Part shown: piece after piece, positions 5,501 to 36,056 of the stretch
Numbering within the stretch: the first letter of the stretch is position 1
Layout of the letters: every line of letters begins with the position of its first letter
NCBI RefSeq assembly: GCF_002932875.1
Contig: NZ_PSWS01000054.1
Location: 1 to 64,000 of the forward strand
Reading direction: 5' to 3'
DNA length: 64,000 nucleotides
Origin: Rathayibacter tritici
GTDB taxonomy: Bacteria > Actinomycetota > Actinomycetes > Actinomycetales > Microbacteriaceae
Position numbers and translations under genes: made by a program
Notes under the pieces: generated by a model
Told to the model about the DNA's origin: nothing
Databases searched by the model: none
The model's input: the letters and a program-made list of their open reading frames with translations, nothing else

Positions 5501-5618
5501 CGAACCGAGCATAGGGCGGCACTCGGCCCGCCCTCGCCCGCGCCTACCGCCTGGCGGCACACTGCGAACTCGCGGAACCTGGACTCTTTTCCCGTTGGGA
5601 CTGCGAGAATCCGTAGCT

Positions 5619-22804: not shown

Positions 22805-23351
22805 CCCCGCGGGGTACTCGGCCCTCGCGTCGGCGACAGGCCGGGCTTTGTGATGCGGGGGTGCCTCCTGGCGTGACGGTGCTGCGTCATTCGCCCCTCG
22901 CCAGGGGGCCCCGAGGGGCGGAACTCTGCATCGATCGCGTCGTCCGCGCCTGCGCCTACCGCGCATCCGCAGCGGTGCACCCGGCCGTCGCCGAACGCTG
23001 CGCCCGCAGGAATGTCATGAAGCCCCACGACCTTCTGCAGGACGACGACGTCGAACGCGTCAGCAACCTGACGGCCGAGGTGACCTGAGCGAAGCGAGAG
23101 AGAGCGGGCGTCCACATCGTCACCCTGCGCTCGGCAGGGTCATGTCCATCGACGACAACGAAGACTCCCAGGCCGTCGCCGCGTCGGATCATCTGGAGGG
23201 CACCGACCGTGAGGCCGGGGGTGGTGACGGCGGCAATGCTCTGGTGGAACTGGATGTCGGCGTCGGTGAGGTGGTCGAGGAGCATGTCGGCAAGGTCTTC
23301 ACGGGCGCAGAAACGGCCCTCGATCTCGTCTCGGGCTGTCTGGTCGACGCC
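22805..23351 (-). other. Gene-poor decayed stretch, possible FCD/GntR remnant
   Basis: No convincing intact gene. On the minus strand around 23150-23345 one frame reads DIQFHQSIAAVTTPGLTVGAL after EDLADMLLDHL, which resembles part of an FCD ligand-binding domain of a GntR/FadR regulator, but it is short and soon runs out. All longer open frames here look like GC-driven noise. This stretch marks the transition from core genome to the accessory region. Confidence 0.3.
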
Positions 23352-23930
23352 TTAACGGGAGGCAGTGATCGTGTCCTCCACGACGCTCCGCATCCTCGCG
23401 TGCCCGCGGTCTCCAGAGAGGCGGCGATGCCAGGACAGCACGATGGCGACGTCGGGAAGGTGAATGGGCAGTACGAAGACGGCCGCGCGGCCGGTTGCGG
23501 CGGCGCGCTGGGCAACGGTTGCGGGAACGGCCACGACCGAGTCGCTCGCCTGAAGGATCTCACTCGCAGCGGCGGTCGAGGCGACGGATGCCACCACGGT
23601 GCGCGTCACACCGTGAGCCTCGAGGAGCTCGTCGACGCGGTCGCGGAGACGCCTCGCCTCGACACGGTGATGTGATGTGCCGCGGCCCATCGAGGGACGT
23701 CGAGGCGGTTGTCGAAGAGAGGATGACCGGGCCGGGCGAGTCCGACGAGCGCGTCCGTGCCGACCTGCTCATGAGCGATGTCGGAGGACCCCGGAACCGC
23801 GGAGCCGATCTCGAGGTCCACGAGCCCCCGCCGCAGGTCCGCAGTGTCGTCCGCAGACTCCGTGAGGAACCTCAGCGCGACACGGGGAGCGTCGGCCATG
23901 ACGCGTCCGACGAGACCACGTGCTCCTCGG
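23352..23930 (-). pseudogene. Frameshifted, truncated LysR-family regulator
   Basis: Two minus-strand frames together make the ligand-binding half of a LysR regulator. The first (about 23930 to 23670) reads MADAPRVALRFLTESADDTA onward, with LRRGLVDLEIG and ALVGLARPGHPL, then WAAAHHITV. The homology then jumps one frame and continues from about 23675 to 23352 with ARRLRDRVDELLEAHG, VVASVASTAAASEIL and PDVAIVLSWHRR. The frameshift lies close to 23670-23680. The N-terminal winged helix is absent: the gene is cut off just before the end of the enoyl reductase gene. This is the left flank of the accessory cluster. Confidence 0.7.
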
Positions 23931-23977
23931 CCGCTTCTCGTCGGCGAACCGCGTCGATGACGGCCCGTCGCTCCTCG

Positions 23978-24745
23978 CTAGTAGCCGACTGCATGGAAGC
24001 CTCCGTCGACGTGGATGATCGACCCGGTTGTGGCGCGCAGCAGGTCGCTCAGAAGTGCGACTGTCGCGTCGGCAACCGGCGCGGGGTCAGTGTCGTCCCA
24101 GCGCAGGGGAGCGCGGTTCCAGACTTCTCCCACCTCATTGATGCCCTCAATTGCTCGCATCGTCATGGTCTGGACCGGTCCAGCGGCGATGAGGTTGGAG
24201 CGGATCCCACGTGGCCCCAGATGAAGCGCAAGGTAACGATTGGTGGCCTCGTAGGCAGCCTTCGCAGGACCTGCCCAGCCGTAGATCGGCCACGCCACAC
24301 CGGCATCGAAGGTGCACCCGACAACGCTTGAACCTGAACCCATGAGGGGCAGCGCGGCACGGACGAGGCTCTGAAGTGAGTATGCCGAGACCTGGAAGGA
24401 ATGAGAAACATCCGCCCACGGAGCCTCAAGGAAGTGCCCACCGACGACCGACCGGTAGCTACCCGAGATGAAGTGCACGACACCGTGCAGCTCATCCGTC
24501 TGCTCCCGGAGAGCGGCAGTCAAGGCCTCGGGGTGACCAGATTCTGTGGCGTCGAATTCAAGCACAGCAGCGGGCTGGGGGAGCCTCCTGGCGATGGTTG
24601 TGGCGGCGCGGAGCTGCTTCCCGTAAGCCGTGCACAGGACCCGACCGCCATGCTGCTGTATCGCAGCCGCCGTAGGGAAGGCCAGAGATTGGTCGGTCCA
24701 CAGACCAGCAACAAGGAAGGTCCTACCTGCGAGAAGCGCGCTCAC
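23978..24745 (-). CDS. Enoyl-ACP reductase (FabI/InhA-like short-chain dehydrogenase)
   Basis: A 255-residue SDR of the divergent FabI type. The cofactor region reads GLWTDQSLAFPTAAAIQQHG (compare GxxxxxSIA of FabI/InhA). The active-site tyrosine and lysine lie in YGWAGPAKAAYEATNRYLA (YX6K), followed by LIAAGPVQTMTMRAI, which matches the InhA GPIRT-type segment. It would reduce trans-2-enoyl-ACP with NADH. It is the last of three minus-strand genes (86-residue ORF, Rv3651-like gene, this one) with a 4-base overlap to the gene before. Base composition is lower in GC than the flanks. It is probably an accessory copy rather than the housekeeping FAS enzyme. Confidence 0.8.
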   Translation of the reverse strand: MSALLAGRTFLVAGLWTDQSLAFPTAAAIQQHGGRVLCTAYGKQLRAATTIARRLPQPAAVLEFDATESGHPEALTAALREQTDELHGVVHFISGSYRSVVGGHFLEAPWADVSHSFQVSAYSLQSLVRAALPLMGSGSSVVGCTFDAGVAWPIYGWAGPAKAAYEATNRYLALHLGPRGIRSNLIAAGPVQTMTMRAIEGINEVGEVWNRAPLRWDDTDPAPVADATVALLSDLLRATTGSIIHVDGGFHAVGY

Positions 24746-25800
24746 GAGACACGCTCGAAGGCGACGACGATGTATCGACCTCGCTCTAGATGTACGTCTG
24801 CCGAAACTACCCGAACCCGGTACATAGTTCCGTTCAGGGTGTAGTCGTGCGGGGAGCTGGGCACTTCGGAACGTGCGGTGGTGCGGAACATATCGAGGAG
24901 TTCATCCAGCACCGACCCAACGGCCAGGTCAGCGAGGAGAATCGCGTCCGCGGGTAAGCCTGTCCGTTCCCAATTAGGGGATCGCATGAAGATCGTGCCC
25001 TGGATCACGTCGATGGCCGCAAGCGCTTGCGTCGTAGCGAGTGCGAATGCTGCGGAAGCCAGGCCATCAAGTGCCGGAGCCGCACGGTCAACCGGCTGAA
25101 TCTTCGGGGATTTCTCAACGGAGTGACTGAATCCCCGAAGCCATAGGGCGCCTGGATCGTCTGGATCAGGATACGCACGCGCATACATGCACATGGCGAA
25201 CGTGTCCCCCGTGTCCTGCCGGATCGCATCGTAACCCAGGACTTGAAGCGTCTGAGGCGCGTCCTTAATGCCGCTGTCGATGGCCAGTTTGATGGTGGCT
25301 GCTGAGGACGGGGGGAGGAACTTGGCGAGCCACTCGGCTGATGGCCCGCGGGTCGTGTCGATCCCTGCCGGGTCCACGCCATAGATGCGGTAGAGGTCGT
25401 CATTCCAGCGGCTGGCATTTGGCCCACGGTTCTGCCCCGTCCGGCGGTCGACACGCCATTGCCAGGTACCGATTACCGGGGCATCTTCTGCCACAGTACC
25501 AACTGGGTAGTAGATACCGGTTGCGCCGAGAATAGTGGTTCTGTCGGGACTCCACACCAGCCGCACATCAACGGCGTACTTTCGGCCGGCATAGGTTTCG
25601 TTGACGAAACGATCGGCTTCCGCCGCAACAGCCTCGCGCATCGATGCGTAAAGCAGGCGTACGCCGCGTCGATCAAGCGTTCGTCTCAGGCTGACACCAG
25701 GGAACTCCTGGCCACCGAGCTCCCTGAGCGCGATTGCATCACCCAGGATGTCACAGACGACCCAACTGCTGAGGGCGTCCACCTCTGTCAGACCCGACAC
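24742..25800 (-). CDS. Rv3651-like sensory-domain protein
   Basis: A 352-residue soluble protein. The N-terminal part begins with SSWVVCDILGDAIALRELGG, and later VIGTWQWRVDRRTGQNRG, followed by a PAS-like WNDDLYRIYGVDP segment. This layout resembles the mycobacterial Rv3651-type family (PAS/GAF-like domains), which I recognise only by pattern. The C-terminal third (residues 230-352) carries a GAF-like helix and a beta-rich end. No output domain such as a kinase or cyclase is visible. GTG start at 25800, two bases after the upstream ORF stop; it overlaps the enoyl reductase by four bases, so it is co-translated with it. Confidence 0.55.
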   Translation of the reverse strand: MSGLTEVDALSSWVVCDILGDAIALRELGGQEFPGVSLRRTLDRRGVRLLYASMREAVAAEADRFVNETYAGRKYAVDVRLVWSPDRTTILGATGIYYPVGTVAEDAPVIGTWQWRVDRRTGQNRGPNASRWNDDLYRIYGVDPAGIDTTRGPSAEWLAKFLPPSSAATIKLAIDSGIKDAPQTLQVLGYDAIRQDTGDTFAMCMYARAYPDPDDPGALWLRGFSHSVEKSPKIQPVDRAAPALDGLASAAFALATTQALAAIDVIQGTIFMRSPNWERTGLPADAILLADLAVGSVLDELLDMFRTTARSEVPSSPHDYTLNGTMYRVRVVSADVHLERGRYIVVAFERVS

Positions 25801-25802
25801 GT

Positions 25803-26063
25803 CTACCTACTCTCGCCAACCATTGGATTAAACCTGATGGTATCGTAGACGGCGGCGCGCAGCGCCGCATCATTGAGCGTCAGGCTGTCACCTACGGAGG
25901 TGCAGACGTGGTAACGCAGAAGAGTGCGGATAGCACGAGAGCCAAAGCGCCGTTCGGCTTCCGTGTGCGGGACCGAGCCTGTGGGCGAGTCGCGGATCGC
26001 GACAATCAAGCCGAAGGCGCGCTGTTCGCAGATGGAAGGTAAGACGTGAGGTACTTTGGGCAT
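25803..26063 (-). CDS. Small protein, possible winged-helix regulator
   Basis: An 86-residue protein with no family I recognise. HTEAERRFGSRAIRTLLRYHV followed by TLNDAALRAAVYDTIRF could form a small helical DNA-binding domain. The ATG at 26063 faces fabG across a 93-base divergent promoter region, and the stop lies two bases before the GTG of the Rv3651-like gene, so it leads a three-gene operon ending with the enoyl reductase. Operon position is the main support for it being real; the sequence itself is weak evidence. Confidence 0.45.
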   Translation of the reverse strand: MPKVPHVLPSICEQRAFGLIVAIRDSPTGSVPHTEAERRFGSRAIRTLLRYHVCTSVGDSLTLNDAALRAAVYDTIRFNPMVGESR

Positions 26064-26079
26064 GCTGAGCCGATTTCAA

Positions 26080-26105
26080 GGTGTGAGAAATGCGTCCAGC
26101 ACACC
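26080..26105. promoter_or_regulatory. Inverted repeat in divergent promoter region
   Basis: GGTGTG at 26080-26085 and CACACC at 26100-26105 form a perfect 6-bp inverted repeat with a 14-base spacer. It lies in the 93-base gap between the divergent 86-residue gene and the MabA-like gene. This could be an operator for one of the two neighbouring regulators; six-base arms can also occur by chance. Confidence 0.3.
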
Positions 26106-26156
26106 CGCTATCCAGCGAACACGCTATCGAGTACTGTACACCCAGCGGAGGTTGAT

Positions 26157-26861
26157 GTGAAAAAGCTGGCGGTAGTTTTTGGCGCCTCGCGTGGTATTGG
26201 AGCAGCGACGGCACGATGCTATCTCGCCAACGGGTTCGAGGTCGTCGGCACGCATCGAGGTAGCGGCCCCCCAAAAGGAGTTCAGGGCGTCGAAGCCGAT
26301 GTGCGGGACCAGGCGTCGGTGCGCACAGTTTTCCGTCACGCTCGCGCGATGAGCGATGAGACCACGCTGGATACGGTCGTGGTCAACGCCGGAATCGTCC
26401 GACAGGACTTACTCGTGCGGATGCGAGATGAAGACCTTCGAGAGGTATTTGAGACGAACACCTTCGGCGCGTTCAACGTGGTCCGTGCAGCGGTGCGGGA
26501 GATGAACCGCCTCGGTGGCGGTTCGATCGTGCTGGTTGCTTCTGAATCAGCTCGCGCCGGCATCCCGGGCGGAAGCCACTACACGGCCTCGAAGGCAGCT
26601 CTCGAAGGGCTGGCGCGGTCCGCCATGTGGGAGTACGGGAGCGTTGGTATTCGGTTCAACGTTGTGTCACCTGGAGCAACTGAGACAGACATGTTCTCCC
26701 TGGTGAGCGAAGAGAACCGAGCAGCGCACGTCGCTCGTACACCGCTCGGCCGCATCGGTCGACCCGAGGAGATCGCTTCGGTCATCTACTGGGTCTCACA
26801 GTCCACCTACATGACTGGCGCGACGATCCCTGTGACAGGCGGGGAAGGGCTCGGACTTTAG
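26157..26861 (+). CDS. 3-oxoacyl-ACP reductase (FabG/MabA-like)
   Basis: A 234-residue NADPH-dependent SDR. It has the glycine motif FGASRGIGAATAR near residue 8, NAGIV at about 77, the catalytic Ser in VASESARAG and YTASK (YxxxK) around 145-149, and the late SPGATETDM block. The segments VEADVRDQASV and VVVNAGIVRQDLLVRM are close to mycobacterial MabA. GTG at 26157 is preceded by cggagg, an excellent ribosome-binding site, so the longer frame from 26046 is rejected. It is divergent from the enoyl-reductase operon: reductive steps 2 and 4 of fatty-acid elongation are encoded back to back. Confidence 0.85.
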   Translation: MKKLAVVFGASRGIGAATARCYLANGFEVVGTHRGSGPPKGVQGVEADVRDQASVRTVFRHARAMSDETTLDTVVVNAGIVRQDLLVRMRDEDLREVFETNTFGAFNVVRAAVREMNRLGGGSIVLVASESARAGIPGGSHYTASKAALEGLARSAMWEYGSVGIRFNVVSPGATETDMFSLVSEENRAAHVARTPLGRIGRPEEIASVIYWVSQSTYMTGATIPVTGGEGLGL

Positions 26862-27187
26862 GTGATCCGACGCATGAAGGCATCCAGGACCGCTTGGTAG
26901 CGATCGTGGTTGACGCGCCACATCACCGAGCGGCCCGGCCACATAGTGCGTGGCAAATTAGCTTCGACGATCCCCAAACCTTCTAGGAAGATCAGCGTGC
27001 GATGGACCGTGTCGGCATTCAGACCCGTTGACTCCATGATCTGAGTCCGCAAGATCGGCTCCCCGGCGTCCCGAAGCATCAGCAACACCGCAAGACGAGC
27101 CGGGACCGCGAATGCTTGCCGTGCAGCCTCGGCGTCGTCGTCCCAGTCACGATCCTGGCTCGGAGCCGCGAATTTGGGCACGCGCAC
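26858..27187 (-). CDS. Winged-helix transcriptional regulator (ArsR/MarR-like)
   Basis: A 109-residue DNA-binding protein. Residues 18-80 form a winged helix: ARLAVLLMLRDAGEPILRTQ, IMESTGLNADTVHRTLIFLE, GLGIVEANLP. I chose the GTG at 27187 (a GTG at 27181 is also possible); the frame stays open to 27286 but that extension is Arg-rich, without similarity, and would run through the palindrome at 27210. The gene converges on the MabA-like gene, the stop codons overlapping by four bases. Its own promoter lies next to the palindrome, suggesting autoregulation. Confidence 0.75.
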   Translation of the reverse strand: MRVPKFAAPSQDRDWDDDAEAARQAFAVPARLAVLLMLRDAGEPILRTQIMESTGLNADTVHRTLIFLEGLGIVEANLPRTMWPGRSVMWRVNHDRYQAVLDAFMRRIT

Positions 27188-27209
27188 CCTCCGGATAGCA
27201 CTTCCTGAA

Positions 27210-27225
27210 TGAGGTCCAGACCTCA
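27210..27225. promoter_or_regulatory. Perfect palindrome, candidate operator
   Basis: TGAGGTCCAGACCTCA is a perfect 7-bp inverted repeat with a 2-base centre, 22 bases upstream of the chosen start of the winged-helix regulator. Size and symmetry fit a dimeric winged-helix or FCD-type repressor site. I do not see a full second copy near the reductase genes; a half-like gtgaggtac occurs at about 26046. Confidence 0.5.
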
Positions 27226-27342
27226 CTCTACAGGGCGCTCCCGTTGTCTTCCCGCCAGACCTCGACAACCTGCGCATACGATGCAACTATGGTCGGTATC
27301 AGTCCGGTTAGTATCGGGCCGTTTCCGTAGGAGAGGGATGTC

Positions 27343-27600
27343 ATGTTTAGTTGTTGTGGTGCGAGTGTGGATGAGTCCGTGATCGCCGCTCCCGCACTCG
27401 CCAGCTCCAGCTCTCACGCGCCCCAGACGCCCCAGATACGGGCGCTCGTGCGGGCGTTGTCCGCCGCGGTCCTGGCCAACGTGATCGTCACGTTTGCACT
27501 CGCAACCGCTGGCTGCGCCGGGTGGATCGGTGGTAGCCCGGCCGCCCGTAAGCGCCGCGCCACCGCGGCCGCGGACGCGACCAGCGACACCCAGCGGTAA
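27343..27600 (+). CDS. Small membrane protein of unknown function
   Basis: An 85-residue ORF with ATG at 27343 and a purine-rich ggagaggg sequence nine bases upstream. The N-terminus is MFSCCGAS, then a Ser/Ala-rich stretch. One predicted transmembrane helix (VLANVIVTFALATAGCAGWI, about residues 46-65) is followed by a basic tail with RKRR, which would place the C-terminus inside. No family recognised. An inverted repeat (ACCCTC/GAGGGT around 27600-27623) directly after the stop could act in termination. Confidence 0.35.
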   Translation: MFSCCGASVDESVIAAPALASSSSHAPQTPQIRALVRALSAAVLANVIVTFALATAGCAGWIGGSPAARKRRATAAADATSDTQR

Positions 27601-27748
27601 CCCTCCCGCGAGGATCGAGGGTCGACCGGCTGCGGATCCAGCCTCTACGCCAACGAAGAGTTCGGCAAGCAGATTCTTTGGAGGTCATCGCGATAGGCAA
27701 TGGATCACCGGACGCGTCCGACAGTGCAGTGCTCAGCCGGGAGGGGCA

Positions 27749-28402
27749 TCAGCGCGGGCGCTGTGGCCAGGCCTCCCACGATCTGTTCCAGGGTGCGGAC
27801 AACTGCTGCCCGCTGTGGCTGGTCACCCGGTGTTGGCCCGCCGTGGTGCTGTAGCCGCTGCACATGACGAGTTCGCCGTTGCCTCCGATGCGGCAGCCGA
27901 CAGTGATGCCGTCGTCGCCGGCGGTGATGCTTTCCTCGTAGCGACCCGCGACGACGTCGAGAACGGTCCGCTCGAGGTCCTCGGCGAGGGCAGTCCAGTC
28001 GTCGTCGCAGGCGTCGCATCCGCAGACGGGGTACTCGAACCGGTGCAGTGCTCCGGCGTGGACGAGGACGCCGGGAAAGCCGGTCCAGACGATCGTCAGT
28101 GGTGCAGCGTCGACCGAGCGGGGGGTCACTCGCGTGGCACGGGCAGCCCAGGAGATTTCGGCTTCGTCTCGGGATGCGAGGGCTGGGTCGTCCTTGATCG
28201 TGACGTCGTAGGTGCGCGCGAGGTGCTCGATCAGGGCGTCCGCGATCGCGTGCAGGGGCCGGAATCGCTCGGTGTTGCTGGTGACGGAGTAACTGTCGTC
28301 CGGAGGTGATTCTCCTCCCCAACGGGTGCCGTAGGGGATGGGCCGACCGCCGTCGTCCCTGAAAACGCGGTCCTCGACAGCGGGGCGGGCGTAGTTCGTC
28401 AT
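27749..28402 (-). CDS. DUF6226-like hypothetical protein
   Basis: A soluble 217-residue protein. The segment YPVCGCDACDDDW with LVHAGALHRFEYPV before it is, from memory, typical of the actinobacterial DUF6226 family. That clustered cysteine motif (CGCDAC) might bind metal. ATG at 28402 gives MTNYARPAVEDRVF as the N-terminus; an earlier in-frame start at 28435 would add eleven residues. No partners are obvious. Function unknown. Confidence 0.65.
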   Translation of the reverse strand: MTNYARPAVEDRVFRDDGGRPIPYGTRWGGESPPDDSYSVTSNTERFRPLHAIADALIEHLARTYDVTIKDDPALASRDEAEISWAARATRVTPRSVDAAPLTIVWTGFPGVLVHAGALHRFEYPVCGCDACDDDWTALAEDLERTVLDVVAGRYEESITAGDDGITVGCRIGGNGELVMCSGYSTTAGQHRVTSHSGQQLSAPWNRSWEAWPQRPR

Positions 28403-29113
28403 GGGAAAAGCGTACGACCCGACAGGTCTCGCCATCCGACCAGCAAAATTTCGTATGGGGATCGTTCACCGGCACAGTCCCGCAGACGGATCGAGCTGGC
28501 TGCCCTAGCTGATCCTGAGGCCGAGGGGATCGAACGAGCGCTACTTATTACCAGTAGGCGAAGCGGGGTGGACGCCGTAGACGTGGAGGGGATCCGGGCC
28601 TCTGACAGTAATAGACGTGCTGGGTCGCCCCACCCTCATCTGCTGAGCGCTCCTGATTTCCGCGGCTTGCATACACATCGCGAAGGATGGGTGCTGCGGC
28701 GCCAGCCGGTGCTGCGGCCTCCCGGAATCGTCGGCGTCTGATGAGTCAAACGGTGAAGCCGACCGCGATAGCGAGGCCTCAAGCTATGACGAGCAGTGCT
28801 TCGGACACCGTGATCTCCGATCGTTCGATTCAGTCGAACACGCCTGCCCGGCGACTGCACTGTCTTGGTCACGGCGACGGCACGTCTCGTCAGGGGATGA
28901 GCCCCATACGCGTCGCCGTAGCTGCCACACGCGCACGGCCTGTCTCCTTCCATTCTCGCGTCGTCGCCGCCCCCGGAAGGGGACCCAAGAACAACTGTCT
29001 GTCCCTGCGTCCACGCCAAGTCCGCAACCTTGCCACTCGCCCTCAATGCATGTGCCGCGGGCTTCGAGCAAAAGTAGAATGGATTACGATAAACCGTCAT
29101 GTAGGGTCATTTT
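28403..29113. other. 711-base stretch without a supportable gene
   Basis: No intact gene seen on either strand. On the minus strand near 28741-28830 one frame reads ERSEITVSEALLVIA, a TGA stop, then GLAIAVGFTV and a second stop, which looks like a broken membrane-protein C-terminus. The other open frames are Arg/Ser/Pro-rich and resemble noise. I read this as decayed sequence inside the accessory region. Confidence 0.4.
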
Positions 29114-30060
29114 GTGGGACGCCTCATCTCAAATGTCGTCGGCCCAACCTTGCTGGTGACGAAGCTCGACCGTCTCGCTCCGTCGATTCCCTATGAGCGG
29201 AACATCGTCCATGAGCTGACTTGGCGAAGCGTGAAGTTCAGGACCGGGGGTGATCAGATTGGTTCCGTGGTCGCGGCGTCCCCGCGAACTGTCACTCGTC
29301 ATCTTCTGACAGTCAGCGGGGATTTGGCTGAGACGTCAGGCCGCTGGAACTGGGAAAGCAGCTTTTACTCCTCTCTCCAGCCGGGATCCTTCATTGAGCA
29401 CCAGCTTGGCAAGGGCGCGCGAGTTCTCGTTTCTCAGTATTCGTTCGAAAAGTGAGTGATTCACGTCGACGGGCACTCGATGGGCGTTGAGCAGACGTTC
29501 CGCGGGATTCGCTCCGCTGAAGCCGCTGGCTATGCGTCATTGCTCTTGCAACATGCGGAGGAGTCGTCGCGGGAGCTGCCGTTCGGAGAGCGACAGGTCA
29601 TCGATATTGTCGCGGCCGTCGCATTCGCGCGTGAACACGGCGCAGCTCGGGTCATCTTGATGGGATGGTCGCTGGAGTAGCTTTCACCCTCGACGCCGCA
29701 GTCCGGATTCGTGTCGAAGGACTTATCGCGGTGTCTCCCGTCTTCACCGTCGCCGAACCCGTGGGAGACATCAGCACGCGCCGTCATCTGCCGCGAGAGA
29801 CAGTGCGCCTGACCCTCCGTAGGTTGGGCAGGACAGACCAGGCAGTCGGGTAATCATGCAGGCCCAACGTTCCTACGCTCCTCCTGCACCGCGGCGGAGA
29901 CACTGCTGCACCTCTCAGCCGGTCGGTCAAGTTTGCCACCGCTGAGACGACGGAACTCGCAATCTTCAAAGATTTTACTCATGCCCTCGAATGGAACGTC
30001 GACCGCATCCTGTTCGAACGCGAGGTGGAAGACTGGCTGCGACGGAACTCGGAGCAAGCC
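29114..30060 (+). pseudogene. Decayed alpha/beta hydrolase, paralogue of the gene at 32974
   Basis: Several disconnected frames line up in order with the intact hydrolase downstream. 29250-29400 (TVTRHLL, SGRWNWESS) matches its pre-hydrolase domain. VIHVDGHS matches the oxyanion region WVIHIHGIKSS. LMGWS matches FGWSMGG. VEGLIAVSPVF matches ITNLVLVGPAL. FTHALEWNVDRILFEREVED matches the end APHLLEWNTQPEFFEEQVEK. The damage: TGA at 29453-29455 where the intact copy has Trp, a frameshift at about 29675 just after the nucleophile serine, and missing sequence around 29800-29930 that would hold the acid-residue region. It cannot make a working enzyme. Confidence 0.75.
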
Positions 30061-30375
30061 AGCGCCGATGAGAACATCGATAGGCACGAGCGACGAAGCG
30101 TCTCGACGTACGGCCGGAAGAATCAGATCCCACAGAATTTATGTTGATCAAATAGCTTTCGCTGTTGCGTGCTTTGATTCGAGGAAGCCTGGCAACGAGC
30201 GCTGGGCTGGGACGTCAGTTGTCCATCCGTCCAGCGTTGGTTTGATATCGCGTTTCCCAGCTTGAATCTGCAAGATTGGTGACCCGCTTAACTCATCTAG
30301 AAGACGGGCATAGAGGTCGTCTACGCGGCCGAAGTCGAGCCAGTAGGGGAGCTGATGCGGGAGATCGTGTGTCGA
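30061..30375. other. Gap with no supportable gene
   Basis: Between the hydrolase pseudogene and the small winged-helix gene. The hydrolase frame runs on to a stop near 30145. Nothing else looks like a gene; the base composition is mixed and less GC-rich than the core genome. No terminator-like hairpin with a T-run is visible. Confidence 0.3.
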
Positions 30376-30627
30376 TTACCGATCATTGCTCGCCCTCGCT
30401 CCGGGCGTGGCACGGTCCGGGCGGAAGATGAGCCCGTCAGTTCCGCGGCGAAGCACCCCCGCAGACGAGAGCGTTCTGACGCTGCGTGCGAGAGCCAGGG
30501 GACGGATGCCGGTCCTCGCTTCGAGCTCGCCCAGCGAGAGGGCGGCCCCGTCATCCAGCGCGCGCATCAGTTCGGTGCCCTCGACGGTCATGATTGCGAG
30601 TGCCGCGTCGAGCGAGATGGAGCGCAT
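30376..30627 (-). CDS. Small winged-helix regulator
   Basis: An 83-residue protein starting MRSISLDAALAIM. Residues 14-68 look like a winged helix: EGTELMRALDDGAALSLGEL, EARTGIRPLALARSVRTLSS, AGVLRR. The ATG at 30627 begins the recognisable domain; the frame extends upstream to 30912 but overlaps the start of the XRE gene. It is divergent from the XRE-ImmA cassette with 153 bases between. A comparable winged-helix gene lies on the same strand immediately after the intact hydrolase (34090-34551), so each hydrolase copy is followed by an opposing regulator. Confidence 0.6.
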   Translation of the reverse strand: MRSISLDAALAIMTVEGTELMRALDDGAALSLGELEARTGIRPLALARSVRTLSSAGVLRRGTDGLIFRPDRATPGARASNDR

Positions 30628-30780
30628 GTGAGGCCCTTCAAGTCGTGGGACTCGGGCGTCGGGTACGCCCGTGGGTTGGCGGAACCGCGCCAAGAATCGG
30701 GTACGCTTGGCAAGCCGCTCCGTTTGGCAAGACAGTAACAGAGGTTTCCCTATGTTTGGGATCTGAGAGGACGCTTCCCC

Positions 30781-31470
30781 ATGCCGATGGTTTCGCAGCC
30801 CGTTCCGGGCTTGCTGACACGATCCCTGGGCCGCGGGCTCCGCGCGGCGATGGCCGAGCGACGCACAACCCTCGCCGAGGCAGCTCACGCGATCGACGTC
30901 TCTGAGGGGCAACTGTCAAAGATGCTCCACGGCAAGCGGCGGATCGACATCGAGAAATTCGACGAACTCTGCCAGTTCCTGGAACTCGACTCCGTTGAGG
31001 CGTTCAGGGCGGCGAAGGCCGGGGAGCGTCCACGGCTCGGCCCCGGCAACGCCGTCACCGAGTCGGAGACTTTCCTCGAGGACGTGGACGAGTTCAGCCG
31101 ACGACTACGGTTCCTCGCGAGACGACACCCAGATGACCCATACACCGCAGCGTCCCGCGCTTCTGGTCGCATCGGCGTCGCCCTCTCGTTCTCCCAGTGG
31201 GAAGACCTGTTGGACGGGGCGATGCCCAGCGTGCCGGCAGGGGCCGTCAGCGTGGCGATCAGTGTGGCTCTCGGCGCAGATGGTGCGTACCTCCGGCTGA
31301 TGGATGCCGACGCCGCCGAACGTTTCGAGGCGCAGCTCGAACTCGAGGAGACGATGCGGCGGACGGGCACAGCTCGGATCGCTGCTCGGAATCTGAGCGG
31401 GCTAGGCGTCGACGAGATCCGGGCGATCGCCGATCTCTTGCGCCGAGCCGGTGGGAGCGCGGGGGAGTGA
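30781..31470 (+). CDS. XRE-family regulator of an ImmA-type cassette
   Basis: A 229-residue protein with an N-terminal XRE helix-turn-helix at about residues 15-70 (GLRAAMAERRTTLAEAAHAI, then SEGQLSKMLHGKRRIDIEKF). The C-terminal 150 residues (FLARRHPDDPYTAASRASGR and an acidic helical part) are unlike common repressors and could be the sensing or cleavage-sensitive part. The ATG at 30781 is the first start. Its stop shares bases with the GTG of the ImmA-type peptidase gene, so regulator and protease are made together, as in phage and ICE ImmR/ImmA pairs. Confidence 0.82.
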   Translation: MPMVSQPVPGLLTRSLGRGLRAAMAERRTTLAEAAHAIDVSEGQLSKMLHGKRRIDIEKFDELCQFLELDSVEAFRAAKAGERPRLGPGNAVTESETFLEDVDEFSRRLRFLARRHPDDPYTAASRASGRIGVALSFSQWEDLLDGAMPSVPAGAVSVAISVALGADGAYLRLMDADAAERFEAQLELEETMRRTGTARIAARNLSGLGVDEIRAIADLLRRAGGSAGE

Positions 31471-31952
31471 GCGCGGCCTCCGAAGACTCGGACAAAAAAT
31501 CAGCGCGGAAAGTTGTTCGGCGAATGATTCAGCGGCTTCGGTTGCCCCCGGAGGGCGGGCTCAATGTGATCGTTGCGCGCGCCGAGGAGGTATATGGGAA
31601 GCCGCTCGTCATCGAGGCAGTGACCGACGACAAGCTCCGACGTTTGACGGGCCTCTTCCGCGATACGGAGACGAAAGGTCACATCTGGTATCGACTCGCG
31701 GACGCTGAGGTCTACCAGATTCACTGCGTCCTGCACGAGATAGGGCACGCGGTCTTCAAGCACACTGACTGCGTGCTTCTCCGGAGATTAGGTGTGGCCA
31801 TAGATGATGAAGCCTTCCGCGGAGCCAACATCCTCCGTGGTCGCGGTCTCGTCAATGACCCGTCGGAGCTGGTCGCAGAACTGTTCGCGCTCGAGCTGAT
31901 GCGAACGATGCTCGAGACTCGGCTTGCACCCGGAGAGGAAGAGTTCGGATGA
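31467..31952 (+). CDS. ImmA/IrrE-type zinc metallopeptidase
   Basis: A 161-residue protein with the zinc protease motif HEIGH at residues 90-94 (in CVLHEIGHAVFKH) and a downstream acidic block (NDPSELVAELFALELM) that would supply the third ligand, as in ImmA/IrrE (Peptidase_M78-like) proteins. Family members cleave a partner XRE repressor in response to a signal; the XRE gene directly upstream, overlapping by four bases, is the obvious candidate. The GTG at 31467 is preferred over the longer open frame from 31197, which lies within the XRE coding region. It overlaps the next gene by four bases (ATGA). Confidence 0.82.
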   Translation: MSAASEDSDKKSARKVVRRMIQRLRLPPEGGLNVIVARAEEVYGKPLVIEAVTDDKLRRLTGLFRDTETKGHIWYRLADAEVYQIHCVLHEIGHAVFKHTDCVLLRRLGVAIDDEAFRGANILRGRGLVNDPSELVAELFALELMRTMLETRLAPGEEEFG

Positions 31953-32977
31953 TGGGCGCAACGTCGTGGCTGACAAGCCATCTGATTAGCGCCTGCGTGC
32001 TCCTCACGGTGACGCTACTGCTCGTGCTGTGTATAGGCCGAGCCCGCTCCTCGCTCAAGAATTCCGCGGCACGGCCAGCGTGGCTCGCGTCGTTCTTCGC
32101 ACTCATCGGGATGCTCACGCTGAACATTGGAGTCCCCCTCGCTACCGTCGACGGCTTGCTCGGCGGAACCAATCTATGGAATCTGGTCGAGGCTCTCGCC
32201 GCTACGTGCTCGTTCTGGTTTTTCCGCCGCGCAGTCGGCCTGCTGGTGAACAAGACGGTGCGCCCACGTCGCCTATGGCTACTCGCATTGGTATTAGCGG
32301 CCGAGGCAATTCCGTTCTTCTCTATTGAGAGAATCGGCCCCACTGCGGCAACTTTTGTCGATGATCATCTCGGTCAGCTTGCTTGCTACATCTATCTCAT
32401 GGTATATATCGTCGCTATCGGGACTATAGCAGCTCACTCCCTTCTGCTCGTGGCGAACCGCGCGGTGAGCGTCCTGGGCTGGTTCTTGTGGGGCTATCGC
32501 CTCATCGCAATTGCATGTGCGTCGCACCTCATTTATCTCACAATCGGGCATTTTGGCCTGGGATCTCGTGAGGCACAGCAAGGTCTCAAGGCGTTCTTTT
32601 ACGTTCTCTTTTGCTTCGGCGTTGCGCTTCTCGCGGTTGGCTGGGGTTCATTCTTTATTCGGCGGCAACATAAGCAGCTCCAGCCACTTTGGCGCATCCG
32701 AGCCCTGCGGATCAGCCTTCTCCTCGACAAGATTACGAATAGCAAGCCAGGAGTTGCAAGCGTCTTCATCGCGATCACCGCCAGCGAGCCTCGTGCTCGA
32801 GCTTATGCGGACACAACATGGGTTTTAGACGAAATCAATGACAACAATGCATTTCTCACCAGTCGAGAGGCAAAACTATTGAAGAGGGTAAACGAAGACC
32901 TGCTCGCGCACTTAGGCCACGCAGGAGAATTGGCTGCAATTTCGAAAGTATCGAACGACAAGGGAATCTCTGAATGA
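31949..32977 (+). CDS. Seven-helix membrane protein (MAB_1171c/DUF6545-like)
   Basis: A 342-residue integral membrane protein with about seven predicted helices (near residues 13-29, 44-66, 76-93, 106-124, 140-165, 172-198, 214-236). A soluble C-terminal domain of about 105 residues follows (RIRALRISLLLDKITNSKPG onward). This shape and its place after XRE and ImmA genes fit the actinobacterial family annotated as MAB_1171c putative transporters, from memory; no biochemical function is established that I know of. GC content is clearly lower than in the core genome. Starts and ends with 4-base overlaps, so it is locked into the cassette. Confidence 0.65.
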   Translation: MMGATSWLTSHLISACVLLTVTLLLVLCIGRARSSLKNSAARPAWLASFFALIGMLTLNIGVPLATVDGLLGGTNLWNLVEALAATCSFWFFRRAVGLLVNKTVRPRRLWLLALVLAAEAIPFFSIERIGPTAATFVDDHLGQLACYIYLMVYIVAIGTIAAHSLLLVANRAVSVLGWFLWGYRLIAIACASHLIYLTIGHFGLGSREAQQGLKAFFYVLFCFGVALLAVGWGSFFIRRQHKQLQPLWRIRALRISLLLDKITNSKPGVASVFIAITASEPRARAYADTTWVLDEINDNNAFLTSREAKLLKRVNEDLLAHLGHAGELAAISKVSNDKGISE

Positions 32978-34086
32978 TCGCGGTTACTTCCGCCTCGACG
33001 GTTATCGTCGCGCTGCTTCTTCTCCTCGCAGTAGACATCGCACTCATGCGACGCATTGTACTCGAAGGACGTCGCACAACGATCGACTTCACCTACGACC
33101 CGGATCGATCAGAGCTGGTCCTTCACCGGACACCTCTCGTGGAACGTCCTGGTCGTTACGGTATCTGGGTTCGAGGCGGCGGCCACTTCTCCGTCGGAGA
33201 GATCGTCTTCACCGATCCTTCGAACGCAACGGTCACCAGGAAGGTCCTCCTCGCTACGGACGCCCCCGCGGGCGGCAGGCTCTCAGGACGATGGACCGGT
33301 CACGCCTTCGCGAACGCGTGGACCACAGGTTATGAATTCACGGAAGTATTGATCGAGACCGAGGGAGCACCTCGGCCGGCGTGGGTCTTCCCCGGAGAAT
33401 CAGACAACCGATGGGTCATCCACATACACGGCATCAAGTCATCCCGCGCATCTGCGCTCCGCGGCGTGAGGGTGGCGCAGCGCCTCGGCTACACGTCCCT
33501 CGTCCCCTCGTTCTATGGCGACGGTGAAAGTGGAGGCCGGGAAGGATCGACCCTCGGGCTCCGGGAGGCGGCCGACGTCGCGCGAGCCGTCCGCTTCGCC
33601 GTGGAGAGCGGCGCACAGTCCGTGACACTCTTCGGCTGGTCGATGGGCGGGACGATCGCCCTGATGCTCGCCGATGAGCCCGAGTTTCGCGGGCGCATCA
33701 CGAACCTCGTGCTGGTTGGTCCGGCACTGAACTGGCGCGCAGCGCTCGAGCGCGGGATGACTGCGGCGCGAGTACCCGGCTTCCTCATCGGTCTCGTCTG
33801 TTGGTCCCTTGAGTCACGACTCCTGAGCCGTTTCGCACACATGGAGCGCCCGGTAAGCTTCGAGCAGCTCGATAGGACACACCGATCTTTGCGAGTGCCT
33901 ACGCTCGTGCTCCACTCCCGAGGTGACGCTGATTCATCGTGGCGAGAGAGCGAGGAGCTCGCAGTAAGAAATCGCTCTCTTGTCGAACTCGTGGAGTTCC
34001 CGCCAGCGCCGCACCTCCTCGAATGGAATACGCAGCCTGAATTCTTTGAAGAGCAGGTGGAGAAGTTCCTCCTTCGGAGGTGTTGA
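32974..34086 (+). CDS. Membrane-anchored alpha/beta hydrolase
   Basis: A 370-residue protein. One N-terminal transmembrane helix (residues 8-25) precedes a beta-rich domain (about 35-140) and an alpha/beta-hydrolase domain. HIHG at 150-153 is the oxyanion-hole motif. The nucleophile is Ser223 in GWSMGG, Asp318 (in SRGDAD) is the likely acid, and His347 (in PHLLEWN) the base. It is the fourth gene of the cassette, overlapping the membrane protein by four bases. A broken paralogue lies at 29114-30060. It converges on a winged-helix gene three bases away. Substrate unknown; an ester or amide signal is one possibility. Confidence 0.82.
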   Translation: MIAVTSASTVIVALLLLLAVDIALMRRIVLEGRRTTIDFTYDPDRSELVLHRTPLVERPGRYGIWVRGGGHFSVGEIVFTDPSNATVTRKVLLATDAPAGGRLSGRWTGHAFANAWTTGYEFTEVLIETEGAPRPAWVFPGESDNRWVIHIHGIKSSRASALRGVRVAQRLGYTSLVPSFYGDGESGGREGSTLGLREAADVARAVRFAVESGAQSVTLFGWSMGGTIALMLADEPEFRGRITNLVLVGPALNWRAALERGMTAARVPGFLIGLVCWSLESRLLSRFAHMERPVSFEQLDRTHRSLRVPTLVLHSRGDADSSWRESEELAVRNRSLVELVEFPPAPHLLEWNTQPEFFEEQVEKFLLRRC

Positions 34087-34089
34087 CAG

Positions 34090-34551
34090 CTAGGGTACTG
34101 GATCACCGCTTCGGAGCCGTTCCAGGTGAGACTCAGCGAGTCTCTTGAGGGCAGGACTTCCCTCTGACTTCACAACCTCAAGCTGAAGGTGTTGTTCCAT
34201 TGTGCGTTGCCGCGACGGATTGGTGTAGTTGTGCCACGCAAGATCCAGCTCCCACAGGCGGTAGTGGTTCCGTGAGTAGAGGCCGCCCTGTTGCTTACTG
34301 GGATCATCGGCAGTCGATTCGCGCCCGTAGTCTACTGTCACGACCCCGTACCTCCGCAGATCGTCGAGGACGCGGCCGAGGGTACCGTATGCGATGCCCG
34401 TTTCTCGTGCGATGACGCCTCGCGTCGCCCCGGTCACCGTGTCGAGGTACCTGAGGACCTCAGCGCGCGAACGGTTGCCGTTGACCAGGATCGCGATTTC
34501 GACATCCACGGGTCTCGCTTCGGGTGTCGGCCATTCAACTTTCGGGGACAT
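34090..34551 (-). CDS. Winged-helix transcriptional regulator
   Basis: A 153-residue protein with a winged helix at about residues 15-75 (VEIAILVNGNRSRAEVLRYL, DTVTGATRGVIARETGIAYG, TLGRVLDDLRRYGVVTVDYG). A C-terminal helical part (SRNHYRLWELDLAWHNYTNP) could mediate dimerisation. ATG at 34551 is preferred; the frame extends to 34632 without similarity. It converges with the hydrolase, and is the same strand and position as the smaller winged-helix gene next to the dead hydrolase, suggesting that a hydrolase-regulator block was duplicated. Confidence 0.7.
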   Translation of the reverse strand: MSPKVEWPTPEARPVDVEIAILVNGNRSRAEVLRYLDTVTGATRGVIARETGIAYGTLGRVLDDLRRYGVVTVDYGRESTADDPSKQQGGLYSRNHYRLWELDLAWHNYTNPSRQRTMEQHLQLEVVKSEGSPALKRLAESHLERLRSGDPVP

Positions 34552-34662
34552 GCGTCCATCTTCCCGTAAGGGAAGGTCCAGCAGAGCCTGGGTGAGGGGG
34601 ATCCCGCCGTTCTGCGACGCGCAGGCAAGCAACGACCGACCACGTGGAATCGACGAGCAATG

Positions 34663-34709
34663 GTGTATCGGTGGGGTAGTGTTGGTTGATCGGTAAGCGA
34701 TACACTACC
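34663..34709. promoter_or_regulatory. Two interlocking inverted repeats
   Basis: GTGTATCG (34663-34670) pairs perfectly with CGATACAC (34698-34705), and GGTAGTGT (34675-34682) pairs perfectly with ACACTACC (34702-34709). The two pairs share the right arm. No T-run follows, so a terminator is unlikely. The site lies upstream of the divergent winged-helix gene and of the decayed ORF at 34790. It looks like an operator or partition-type site; the nearby ParA-like remnant makes a plasmid-derived control region conceivable. Confidence 0.4.
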
Positions 34710-34789
34710 ACCCGCTGCCTCTGGTCCGCAGAGGCCGTTGCGGCGGGCCTCCCCGTCATCTGGAGAAGGAGACTGCGTGCATCGATTGA

Positions 34790-35270
34790 GACGGTCTGAC
34801 GAGCGCCGGCGACCGAAACAACCTGCCTCCGGAGCAACTCGCGAAGTTGAACGATGTCCTGACCACGCTGTTCAACAGCAGCTGGGCGGACGTGTCGAAT
34901 GCGAAGGGCGAGGTCGTGAAGGTCACGACTCCCGACATGCACATCAACTCCACCGCGTTGGTGGCGCTGACCGACACCGTCAAGGACGGAGCAATCGTCG
35001 ACGGCGAGGTTTCCGAGGCGCCACGATCATGGTCGAGGCCTACTGGCAGACCCGCGACAAGGTTTGCTGCGCCGTCAACTCCCGCGTCTACGACGGCTCC
35101 GAGGCGCCCGCCACCTTCACCGCCGGCGAGTGCAGACGGAGCTTGACCACCTGCGTCGAGCACATCCCGACCGAGACCATCGGGGAGGCGACGTCGACTC
35201 GTGTCGTCTCAGTGCTCGCCGCCCATAAGAAGAGCGGAGTCGGGAAGACCACGACAGCGCTGTGCCCAAG
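34790..35270 (+). pseudogene. Frameshifted unknown ORF followed by a ParA-like Walker A stub
   Basis: From 34790 to about 35020 one frame reads as plausible coding sequence (LPPEQLAKLNDVLTTLFNSS, then VKVTTPDMHINSTALVALTD), after which sense continues in another frame (MVEAYWQTRDKVCCAVNSRV). I recognise no family for these parts. At about 35199-35265 the reading VVSVLAAHKKSGVGKTTTAL matches the first strand and P-loop of a ParA-family ATPase, but the frame collapses at once. Together these look like remnants of an integrated element. Confidence 0.4.
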
Positions 35271-35351
35271 AGGAACACGGGCGGCACTCCGCGGCGGGTC
35301 CGTGTCGTCCATCGCGCAGCACGCCCGATCGACCCCGATCAAGGAGAGACC

Positions 35352-35807
35352 ATGAGCGGCACCACATCCATCACCCCTACGGGCTCACCGGAGCTGAACG
35401 TTCTGCGGAGGAACACCGTGGCACCCGGCACCAATGGGGTGCGGCCGCGGCAACAGCGCGGGATCGAGACGCGCGAGCGGCTCCTCCGGGCGGCGACGGT
35501 GGTCATGGCGGAGGTCGGCCGGGACCGACTCACGATCTGCGAGGTCGTGAAGCGCGCGGGAGTGGCAGCCGGAACGTTCTACCGTTACTTCCCCGACCGA
35601 GCCGTCCTGATCGAGGCCGTCCTGGCTCGTGACCCGGTCCATCAAGCTCAGCTCGAGATCCTCAACGAAGCCGTGCTCACGGCAACGACCGTCGGCACCG
35701 AGGGGTGCTCGGCCGCGCTTACAGCAGCAGCGAGACGGCTCGTACAAGTAGTCGCCGACGAGGCCCCCGCTCTCGAACCGGCGCGACCGCGCGCAGCGGC
35801 TCCCTAG
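35352..35807 (+). CDS. TetR-family regulator, probably C-terminally truncated
   Basis: A TetR helix-turn-helix lies at about residues 38-88 (ETRERLLRAATVVMAEVGRD, then VVKRAGVAAGTFYRYFPDR). At 151 residues the protein is shorter than the usual 190-220, and the ligand domain stops abruptly in an Ala/Pro/Arg-rich tail, so the 3' end is probably lost or shifted. The ATG at 35352 has a clean ribosome-binding site (aaggagag). It sits at the right end of the accessory region, upstream of the osmoprotectant operon, which it might once have controlled. Confidence 0.7.
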   Translation: MSGTTSITPTGSPELNVLRRNTVAPGTNGVRPRQQRGIETRERLLRAATVVMAEVGRDRLTICEVVKRAGVAAGTFYRYFPDRAVLIEAVLARDPVHQAQLEILNEAVLTATTVGTEGCSAALTAAARRLVQVVADEAPALEPARPRAAAP

Positions 35808-36056
35808 ACCGGTCGTGGCGCCAACCCGCCCGCGGCGTCACCTCCGTGACAGCAGTGGACGCCTAGCCGCTCCCGGAACATCCCGCAACACGCGGCGCCT
35901 CGGGTTGGCAGGCGGCTCCGAATGGTGTTTGGCTGACCGCCTGGCCCCGTTCGGGGTCGACGGGTCGTGTAGCGGCCACACGCGCGGAGCGAGAGCGGGC
36001 ACAGACGTGGGACAGGGACGAATCGGCGCGCACTCCGCCGGACGGCGGGCAGTTTC

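What the first reader, a model, noticed from the sequence alone, without database searches (positions are those of the whole stretch)
30376..34551. Coupled XRE / ImmA peptidase / seven-helix protein / anchored hydrolase cassette bracketed by winged-helix regulators
Seen: four same-strand genes joined by 4-base overlaps (30781-34086), encoding an XRE regulator, a HEIGH metallopeptidase, a seven-helix membrane protein with a soluble tail, and a membrane-anchored alpha/beta hydrolase with a Ser/Asp/His triad. Opposing winged-helix genes lie at 30376-30627 and 34090-34551. Known: ImmA-type peptidases cleave partner XRE repressors on a signal; MAB_1171c-like membrane proteins often sit next to such pairs. 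Inferred: the membrane protein could sense or export a molecule, the hydrolase could make or destroy it, and cleavage of XRE would switch the cassette. I know of no description of this exact five- or six-gene arrangement.
Basis: partly seen in the sequence, partly recalled or inferred. Interest (0 to 1): 0.75.

Follow-up and report, generated by a model that had tools for sequence, protein, structure and literature searches.

The report
Plasmid switch cassette stranded on chromosome
Four overlapping genes (a repressor, a protease that could cut it, a membrane receptor-like protein and an enzyme) form a unit that in many related bacteria sits between plasmid replication and DNA-transfer genes; this copy is an orphan on a chromosome, and the unit looks like an undescribed control switch for plasmid transfer.

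Summary
XRE, HExxH peptidase, 7TM protein and alpha/beta hydrolase overlap by 4 bases at 30781-34086, followed by a convergent winged-helix gene (34090-34551); the other winged-helix gene (30376-30627) is weakly supported. The linkage is real: in the 30 best loci found by the 7TM profile alone in Microbacteriaceae genomes, 29 have the hydrolase, 29 the peptidase, 27 the XRE gene. The four genes co-vary (r 0.81-0.92) but little with the neighbouring replication-type gene (0.23-0.27), although their order is reshuffled. In 49 non-redundant cassettes the nearest transfer-cluster gene points away from the cassette in 36 and towards it in 1, the replication-type gene away in 28 of 28, on opposite sides in 26 of 26. 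In the window it lies in a 13.3-kb chromosomal insertion without these genes, beside a decayed older cassette. Best reading: an outward-facing 7TM sensor makes the peptidase inactivate the XRE repressor, while the cytoplasmic hydrolase makes or clears the signal. Architecture is shown; signal, cleavage and control of transfer are inferred.

The parts
30376..30627 (-). P0001, possible winged-helix protein divergent from XRE; doubtful part
   Evidence: Pfam only E 0.0046 to HVO_A0114; cassette winged-helix profile E 0.0094 for its frame; no hit at E<=1e-3 among other loci; 36% over 58 aa to a G225 winged helix, E 4e-4 in a small database
30628..30780 (.). intergenic region between P0001 and XRE; presumed promoter. 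Weak operator candidates CTTGGCAAG (30706) and TTTGGCAAG (30723), 17 bp apart
   Evidence: low confidence, no palindrome as clear as in some relatives
30781..31470 (+). P0002, regulator: N-terminal XRE HTH plus EspR-like C-terminal half; presumed repressor
   Evidence: HTH_3 1.5e-6; family profile A4 hits EspR structures, 3r1f E 9.7e-16
31467..31952 (+). P0003, ImmA/IrrE-like HExxH metallopeptidase
   Evidence: M78 in 8 of 22 alignment members, not in P0003 alone; H,E,H of HExxH in 49/49 and two downstream Glu in 48/49 non-redundant cassettes
31949..32977 (+). P0004, 7TM protein of a divergent MAB_1171c/DUF6545 branch with a cytoplasmic tail; presumed sensor
32974..34086 (+). P0005, one N-terminal TM helix, beta domain, alpha/beta hydrolase with Ser223/Asp318/His347, predicted on the cytoplasmic face
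34090..34551 (-). P0006, convergent winged-helix protein, recurrent cassette partner
   Evidence: profile E 2.6e-13; plasmid tblastn hits 1 record of 72,556, a Frondihabitans cassette plasmid, in the same convergent place
29258..30084 (+). decayed hydrolase of an older cassette, in two reading frames
   Evidence: 69% and 56% aa identity to the G225 cassette hydrolase; three frame pieces match the hydrolase profile
30246..30390 (+). decayed winged-helix gene of the older cassette (approximate limits, read by eye from the frames)
   Evidence: frames at 30246 and 30301 resemble the G225 winged helix 5772-6092; not tested statistically
26861..27286 (-). further cassette-type winged-helix gene in the island
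   Evidence: profile E 2.1e-14
22793..36055 (.). chromosomal insertion (island) holding the cassettes; ends approximate
   Evidence: flanks lie close together (about 150-520 bp apart) in 5 of 6 related genomes compared; occupied in G225; GC 0.56-0.69 per kb in 23-36 kb against 0.62-0.76 elsewhere

Best explanation
The four genes are a signal-responsive switch that belongs to the backbone of Micrococcales plasmids, where it lies between a replication-type gene and the conjugation operon. Proposed working: the XRE/EspR-like protein represses its own operon and the neighbouring backbone promoters; the 7TM protein, N-terminus out and tail in, binds a signal on its outer face; its tail then activates the ImmA-like peptidase, which cleaves or inactivates the repressor; the membrane-tethered cytoplasmic hydrolase makes or removes the ester-type signal, or its precursor; the winged-helix gene, often placed towards the transfer operon, is a second regulator. 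In this window the cassette is intact but orphaned in a chromosomal insertion, so here it can only act on itself, on other genes of this genome or in trans on an incoming plasmid. Shown: gene set, linkage, co-variation, placement in relatives, catalytic residues, topology by charge, operator-like palindromes in some relatives. Inferred: signal, cleavage, control of transfer.
For: Linkage from 7TM alone: hydrolase 29/30, peptidase 29/30, XRE 27/30 of the best loci fetched (54 of 398 genomes matched). Co-variation r 0.81-0.92 inside the cassette, 0.23-0.27 with the replication-type gene, 28 loci. Reshuffled gene order with a constant set; peptidase and 7TM on one strand in 45 of 45. Placement: transfer gene pointing away 36, towards 1; replication-type gene away 28 of 28; opposite sides 26 of 26. 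Control: 24 hydrolase loci without cassette have 0 replication-type and 0 transfer-cluster genes (ParA in 2). HExxH 49/49; Ser 48, Asp 47, His 47 of 49. 7TM: conservation highest in outer loops 1 and 2. EspR-like DNA-binding half. Operator-like palindromes: TTGAGCATGCTCAA arrays in front of XRE in 10 of 13 loci searched, the motif having been found in loci of that branch; a palindrome copied at both ends of the cassette in 7 of 48 loci. Known parallel: ICEBs1, where ImmA cleaves ImmR under peptide control (PMC6540685, passages).
Against: No replication-type or transfer-cluster gene was found in the window, and 10 of 49 non-redundant loci show neither (some loci are short). L142 has 7TM and hydrolase genes but no detected peptidase or XRE and is outside these counts. 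In six loci, among them close hydrolase relatives of the window, the regulator matches the XRE profile only weakly (1e-11 to 2e-14) and is annotated MarR in two of them. No clear operator was found in the window; in the TTGAGCATGCTCAA branch the sites sit at XRE, none at a transfer operon apart from one 2-mismatch hit inside a gene. The both-ends result comes partly from related plasmids, and its control measured a wider interval. P0003 and P0004 alone miss the family cut-offs. Outer loop 3 is not more conserved than inner loop 1, and charges of inner loop 2 and outer loop 2 hardly differ. The Foldseek search of the 7TM model has no hit at E<=0.001. A MAB_1171c knockout in another genus was read by its authors as a transport defect (PMC8707978, passages). 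In G225 the 7TM gene is split between two frames.
Confidence: 0.6

Rival explanations
1. The 7TM protein is an exporter: the hydrolase matures a small molecule, the 7TM protein exports it, and XRE-peptidase regulates production.
For: NCBIfam names the family a putative transporter; the M. abscessus MAB_1171c mutant has less biofilm.
Against: The most conserved loops are outer loops 1 and 2; a single 7-helix bundle with a helical tail; no biosynthetic gene in the cassette.
Confidence: 0.17
2. The cassette is a stability or toxin-antitoxin-like module that merely prefers plasmid backbones; peptidase/XRE is the pair, the membrane protein and hydrolase are effectors.
For: COG2856-Xre pairs have been proposed as toxin-antitoxin systems (PMC2701414, passages); frequent on plasmids; two cassettes met at one chromosomal site.
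Against: That paper excluded Xre/membrane-protein pairs because no type II system had a membrane component; placement between divergent replication-type and transfer genes is specific; hydrolase active site kept.
Confidence: 0.12
3. The cassette is an exclusion, immunity or anti-phage module; the orphan in the window silences or blocks incoming relatives.
For: Orphan chromosomal copies exist, including the window; a plasmid repressor supplied in trans can give immunity (recalled, for ICEBs1).
Against: PADLOC gives only weak matches (HTH and capH for P0002, capP for P0003, CARF-type winged helices for P0006); no nuclease or killing domain among the Pfam matches; central placement on plasmids fits control better.
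Confidence: 0.08

Closest known systems
ICEBs1 ImmR/ImmA switch (Bacillus)
   Same: XRE repressor next to an HExxH peptidase on a conjugative element; signal input to the peptidase (PMC6540685, passages)
   Different: Input here would be a 7TM membrane protein with a hydrolase instead of RapI/PhrI; repressor carries an EspR-like half; no transfer-cluster gene found in the window
pLS20 Rco/Rap/Phr control (Bacillus)
   Same: plasmid-borne repressor and signal input for transfer genes (PMC6540685, passages)
   Different: no protease in that scheme; peptide sensing by Rap
XRE-ImmA-MAB_1171c (DUF6545) neighbourhoods of Actinomycetes
   Same: peptidase profile beside 23 and XRE profile beside 16 of 28 MAB_1171c loci, from 17 genomes
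   Different: cassette hydrolase clearly present (E<=1e-20) in only 1 of those 28, genome G001 (Microbacterium); three others have weak hydrolase matches
EspR (mycobacterial nucleoid regulator)
   Same: C-terminal half of the regulator, E 9.7e-16 by profile
   Different: P0002 and 9 of the 11 Microbacteriaceae plasmid members of A4 carry an added N-terminal XRE domain
Pf2001-type esterase (5g59)
   Same: hydrolase core, Foldseek E 4.1e-17
   Different: added TM anchor and N-terminal beta domain; substrate unknown
IrrE/DdrO (Deinococcus)
   Same: COG2856-type peptidase and XRE repressor logic (recalled; abstract start of PMC5552922)
   Different: radiation response; IrrE profile match only E 0.33

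Membership tests
ImmR/ImmA-type switch | XRE repressor and HExxH peptidase in one operon | tested here: met
ImmR/ImmA-type switch | placed next to transfer genes of a conjugative element | tested here: inconclusive
   37 of 49 non-redundant cassettes have a transfer-cluster gene in the fetched stretch, pointing away in 36; none found for the window copy
ImmR/ImmA-type switch | peptidase cleaves the repressor | not testable with these tools
   needs biochemistry
ImmR/ImmA-type switch | Rap/Phr signal input | not tested
   no search for Rap-like genes was made; the conserved, co-varying partner is a 7TM protein
MAB_1171c family (NF042915) | score over curated cut-off of 100 bits | tested here: not met
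   P0004 14.1 bits; relatives up to E 3.5e-26; G001 cassette 84.9 bits: divergent branch
Peptidase_M78 / ImmA | HExxH and downstream Glu; profile match | tested here: inconclusive
   residues met 49/49 and 48/49; profile match for 8 of 22 alignment members, not for P0003 alone
alpha/beta hydrolase | fold and Ser-Asp-His triad | tested here: met
EspR-like regulators | homology of the C-terminal half | tested here: met
   by the family profile
Type II toxin-antitoxin (ZnMP/Xre) | toxic partner neutralised by XRE | not testable with these tools
   no toxicity data
G-protein-coupled-receptor-like fold | significant structural match | tested here: not met
   no hit at E<=0.001; TM-scores by query 0.24-0.43 in the 50 listed

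The most novel reading that the evidence does not exclude
A mate- or crowd-sensing system for actinobacterial conjugation: plasmid-free cells or the host chromosome release an ester-type signal connected with the widespread chromosomal paralogue of the hydrolase, the plasmid's own hydrolase removes the signal inside donor cells, and the outward-facing 7TM receptor licenses transfer by triggering cleavage of an XRE/EspR repressor; orphan chromosomal copies such as the one in this window act as decoys or immunity against incoming plasmids.
Probability: 0.15. Interest if true: 0.88.

Novelty: new variant of a known kind. Interest (0 to 1): 0.68.

Why it matters
How large Micrococcales plasmids decide when to transfer is, to my knowledge, little studied. 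This module is a concrete candidate for that decision. Its 7TM gene is found on plasmids of Clavibacter, Arthrobacter, Curtobacterium, Paenarthrobacter, Pseudarthrobacter, Microbacterium, Leifsonia, Rathayibacter and Cnuibacter, and is annotated 'hypothetical protein' in the 30 records listed of 40. It would add a membrane 7TM input to protease-controlled repressor switches, and it suggests that the name 'putative transporter' for MAB_1171c proteins should be tested against a receptor role.

Tried and rejected
Rejected: (1) 'the hydrolase is specific to plasmid cassettes', my first impression (a line in my notebook entry says so): 207 of 396 sampled Micrococcales-order genomes have a related hydrolase at E<=1e-25, mostly outside cassettes (7TM seen in 8 of the 30 best loci), though cassette and other forms are separated by one change on a tree of 103 (58 with 7TM beside them, 45 without). 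(2) The resolvase match of P0007: it is the front of the decayed hydrolase. (3) A GPCR-like fold: no significant hit. (4) A clear operator in the window: none. (5) Recurrence of palindromes as general proof of operators: 350 of 1753 control windows also have a recurring palindrome and 141 have a far copy 2.5-5.5 kb away, against 16 and 7 of 48 cassette starts; only the both-ends placement (the L141 case may be chance) and the TTGAGCATGCTCAA arrays stand out. (6) Viral origin: no 7TM match in phages, one short unannotated hydrolase record; one pattern scan of viral contigs found no relative. (7) Direct repeats at the island ends: none of 9 bases or more between the two stretches compared.

Selections: plasmid neighbourhoods were fetched for 24 records, picked by me, out of 40 (7TM) and 54 (hydrolase) records with matches. 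Besides the window protein, A1 holds 18, A2 and A3 21 and A4 19 of those. A7 used 21 of 23 and A8 29 of 45 relatives listed. One search examined the 30 loci given for the 54 genomes with matches, best first; the 30 given for 207. The 20 regions were picked by me, mostly on large contigs; 19 of them entered the placement counts (L142 had no detected peptidase). So the placement counts are not a random sample; the non-redundant filter is 7TM identity under 90%. In one search, 66 of 398 genomes were not scored. The names REP and c5 to c15 are mine: REP from the annotation 'replication protein' in L003, with only HTH-type and a weak primase match in Pfam; c5 contains M23/CHAP/SLT-type enzymes; c15 is 'SCO6880 family' by annotation; c6 has a weak ParA-like match. 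The loop limits used were set by me from the model and the charges.
Full report
Observation. P0002 is an XRE regulator, P0003 carries HEIGH, P0004 folds as a seven-helix bundle with a helical tail (mean pLDDT 84), and P0005 as an N-terminal helix, a beta domain and an alpha/beta hydrolase (mean pLDDT 93). A winged-helix gene, P0006, converges on the hydrolase with a 3-base gap. P0001 is much less certain.

Is it a unit? Three starting points agree, of which the second rests on records that I picked. From the hydrolase in a genome collection, 22 of 46 loci have all four genes, 2 more are cut by the contig end inside the 7TM gene, and 22 have no 7TM gene. Of 24 plasmid records fetched, 22 have all four; the 2 others are Deinococcus records with the hydrolase only. 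From the 7TM profile in 398 Microbacteriaceae genomes, 54 match; of the 30 loci given, 29 have the hydrolase (the exception, L098, is a short stretch that ends with the 7TM gene), 29 the peptidase and 27 the XRE gene. Gene order varies: XRE-ImmA-7TM-hydrolase; ImmA-7TM-hydrolase-XRE; hydrolase-ImmA-7TM-XRE; XRE-ImmA-7TM with a convergent hydrolase; and ImmA-7TM-XRE-hydrolase (L151 and L152). A set that stays together while its order changes points to selection for the set. Distances co-vary at r 0.81-0.92 within the cassette in 28 non-redundant loci but at 0.23-0.27 with the replication-type gene next door; none of 500 permutations reached any of these values, the low ones included. In six loci (L009, L023, L025, L027, L029, L030) the regulator matches the XRE profile only weakly.

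Where does it sit? In plasmid relatives the cassette lies between a gene of about 600 aa that I call replication-type (one member is annotated 'replication protein'; Pfam shows HTH-type domains and a weak primase match) and a conjugation operon with peptidoglycan-cleaving enzymes and, in some records, VirB2/TrbC, pilin and SCO6880-family genes (annotations; clusters). Over 64 cassettes the nearest transfer-cluster gene points away in 50 and towards in 1, and the replication-type gene points away in 41 of 41, on the opposite side in 38 of 38. After removing near-identical 7TM proteins (49 left) the numbers are 36 and 1, 28 of 28, and 26 of 26; 10 loci, the window among them, show neither gene. 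The 24 hydrolase loci without a cassette have none of these genes apart from ParA in 2. One region, L142, has a 7TM and a hydrolase gene without detected peptidase or XRE and is not among the 64. Of 54 plasmid records with the hydrolase, 27 are typed conjugative, 5 mobilizable and 22 non-mobilizable.

What the proteins suggest. The family profile of the regulator matches EspR structures (9.7e-16); short forms have only this half, long forms, as here, add an XRE domain. HExxH is unbroken in 49 of 49. At the hydrolase triad Ser is kept in 48, Asp in 47 and His in 47 of 49; the rest are alignment gaps and one Arg at the Asp place, and at least one copy, L006, is in two frames. In the 7TM family positive charges are 3.47, 1.39, 2.45 and 5.82 per protein in inner loops 1-3 and after helix 7, against 0.45, 1.31 and 0.39 in outer loops 1-3, which gives N-out/C-in although the middle pair hardly differs. 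Conservation is highest in outer loops 2 (2.03) and 1 (1.78); outer loop 3 (1.26) is below inner loop 1 (1.46). The top residues are N75, Q143, F123, F136, H201, Y149, D294 (tail) and D68. I read this as an outward binding site and a cytoplasmic output tail. More positive charges follow than precede the hydrolase's helix in 46 of 49, so its catalytic domain should be in the cytoplasm. The nearest solved structure is the esterase Pf2001. Nothing here shows the signal or cleavage.

Operators. Palindromes were first listed for all cassettes. In one branch, on mostly large contigs, TTGAGCATGCTCAA stands near the start of XRE in 3-4 copies (up to 2 mismatches) at steps of about 46, 22 and 22 bases (65 and 22 in L042) in 10 of the 13 loci searched (L042 and L140 are the same genome); these 13 loci, of 17-20 kb each, show only one hit elsewhere, at 2 mismatches. 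In other plasmids a palindrome such as TGAAACATGTTTCA occurs once at the start of the operon and once at its far end, towards the winged-helix or transfer genes: 5 of 10 loci searched with that motif. By an automatic count 7 of 48 loci show a copy at the far end, while 141 of 1753 control windows have a copy anywhere 2.5-5.5 kb away, a range several times wider. This supports autoregulation, and in some plasmids a second site; it does not show control of transfer.

The window itself. The window's right flank is 95% identical to genome G225 and 84-86% to five others. In those five the bases next to 22.79 kb and 36.06 kb of the window lie about 150-520 bases apart, so the window carries a 13.3-kb insertion. 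G225 is occupied at the same site, with its own cassette whose 7TM gene is in two frames. The window still holds remains of that older kind of cassette: 29258-30084 is 69% and 56% identical to the G225 hydrolase in two frames. The intact cassette is of another branch: P0005 is 30% identical to the G225 hydrolase and groups with hydrolases of Arthrobacter-type cassettes (L009, L023, L025, L026, L029; support 0.96). No replication-type or transfer-cluster gene is found in the window at E<=1e-5.

Comparison with what is known. ImmA cleaving ImmR in ICEBs1 under RapI/PhrI control is the closest working model (PMC6540685, passages seen). XRE-peptidase pairs are common (PMC2701414, passages). In 118 Actinomycetes genomes, 17 have a MAB_1171c-family match; of the 28 loci, 23 have a peptidase beside it, 16 an XRE match, and 1 clearly the cassette hydrolase. 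A study of Antarctic Arthrobacter plasmids describes shared conjugation and stability modules; the passages I saw do not mention this unit, and the word ImmA does not occur in its held main text (PMC6305408). Searches for MAB_1171c, Arthrobacter plasmid with ImmA, plasmid backbones in Microbacteriaceae, DUF6545, Arthrobacter plasmids with conjugation, ImmA with conjugative elements, pCM2, pAO1 and IrrE/7TM listed no paper whose title or abstract start describes it; I opened passages of four papers only, the lists were capped, and most subscription journals are not held. I therefore call it a new variant of the protease-controlled repressor switch, not a member of the ICEBs1 type, because the likely signal input differs and the key reaction is untested.

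Noticed in passing
window 22793-36055: A 13.3-kb insertion between a TetR gene and a glycine betaine ABC operon; the site is empty in five related genomes and occupied with largely different content in G225, so it may be a hot spot for cassette-bearing elements.
   Followed up: partly
window 26861-27286 (-): A further winged-helix gene of the cassette type (profile 2.1e-14), about 3.5 kb from the intact cassette; possibly left from yet another cassette.
   Followed up: no
window 27752-28435 (-): A DUF6226 gene (E 2e-66) inside the island, which also has two short-chain dehydrogenase genes (23981-24745, 26046-26858).
   Followed up: no
L161 (G225), 5305-9027: Another cassette at the same chromosomal site, with the 7TM gene in two frames and two winged-helix genes.
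   Followed up: partly
genomes: A relative of the cassette hydrolase is present in 207 of 396 sampled Micrococcales-order genomes at E<=1e-25; the forms without a 7TM gene beside them are a separate group on the tree; their role is unknown.
   Followed up: partly
L152 and L148: Cassettes with two winged-helix genes, and in L152 a second XRE-type gene after the hydrolase.
   Followed up: no
L020, L024: Deinococcus plasmids carry related hydrolases (27.7% and 28.8% identity) with no cassette, one near a Tn3 transposase.
   Followed up: no
L016 (pTC1) 6726-7873: Transposase genes of ISAau1 lie within the 7TM gene of this cassette, which appears as two pieces.
   Followed up: no
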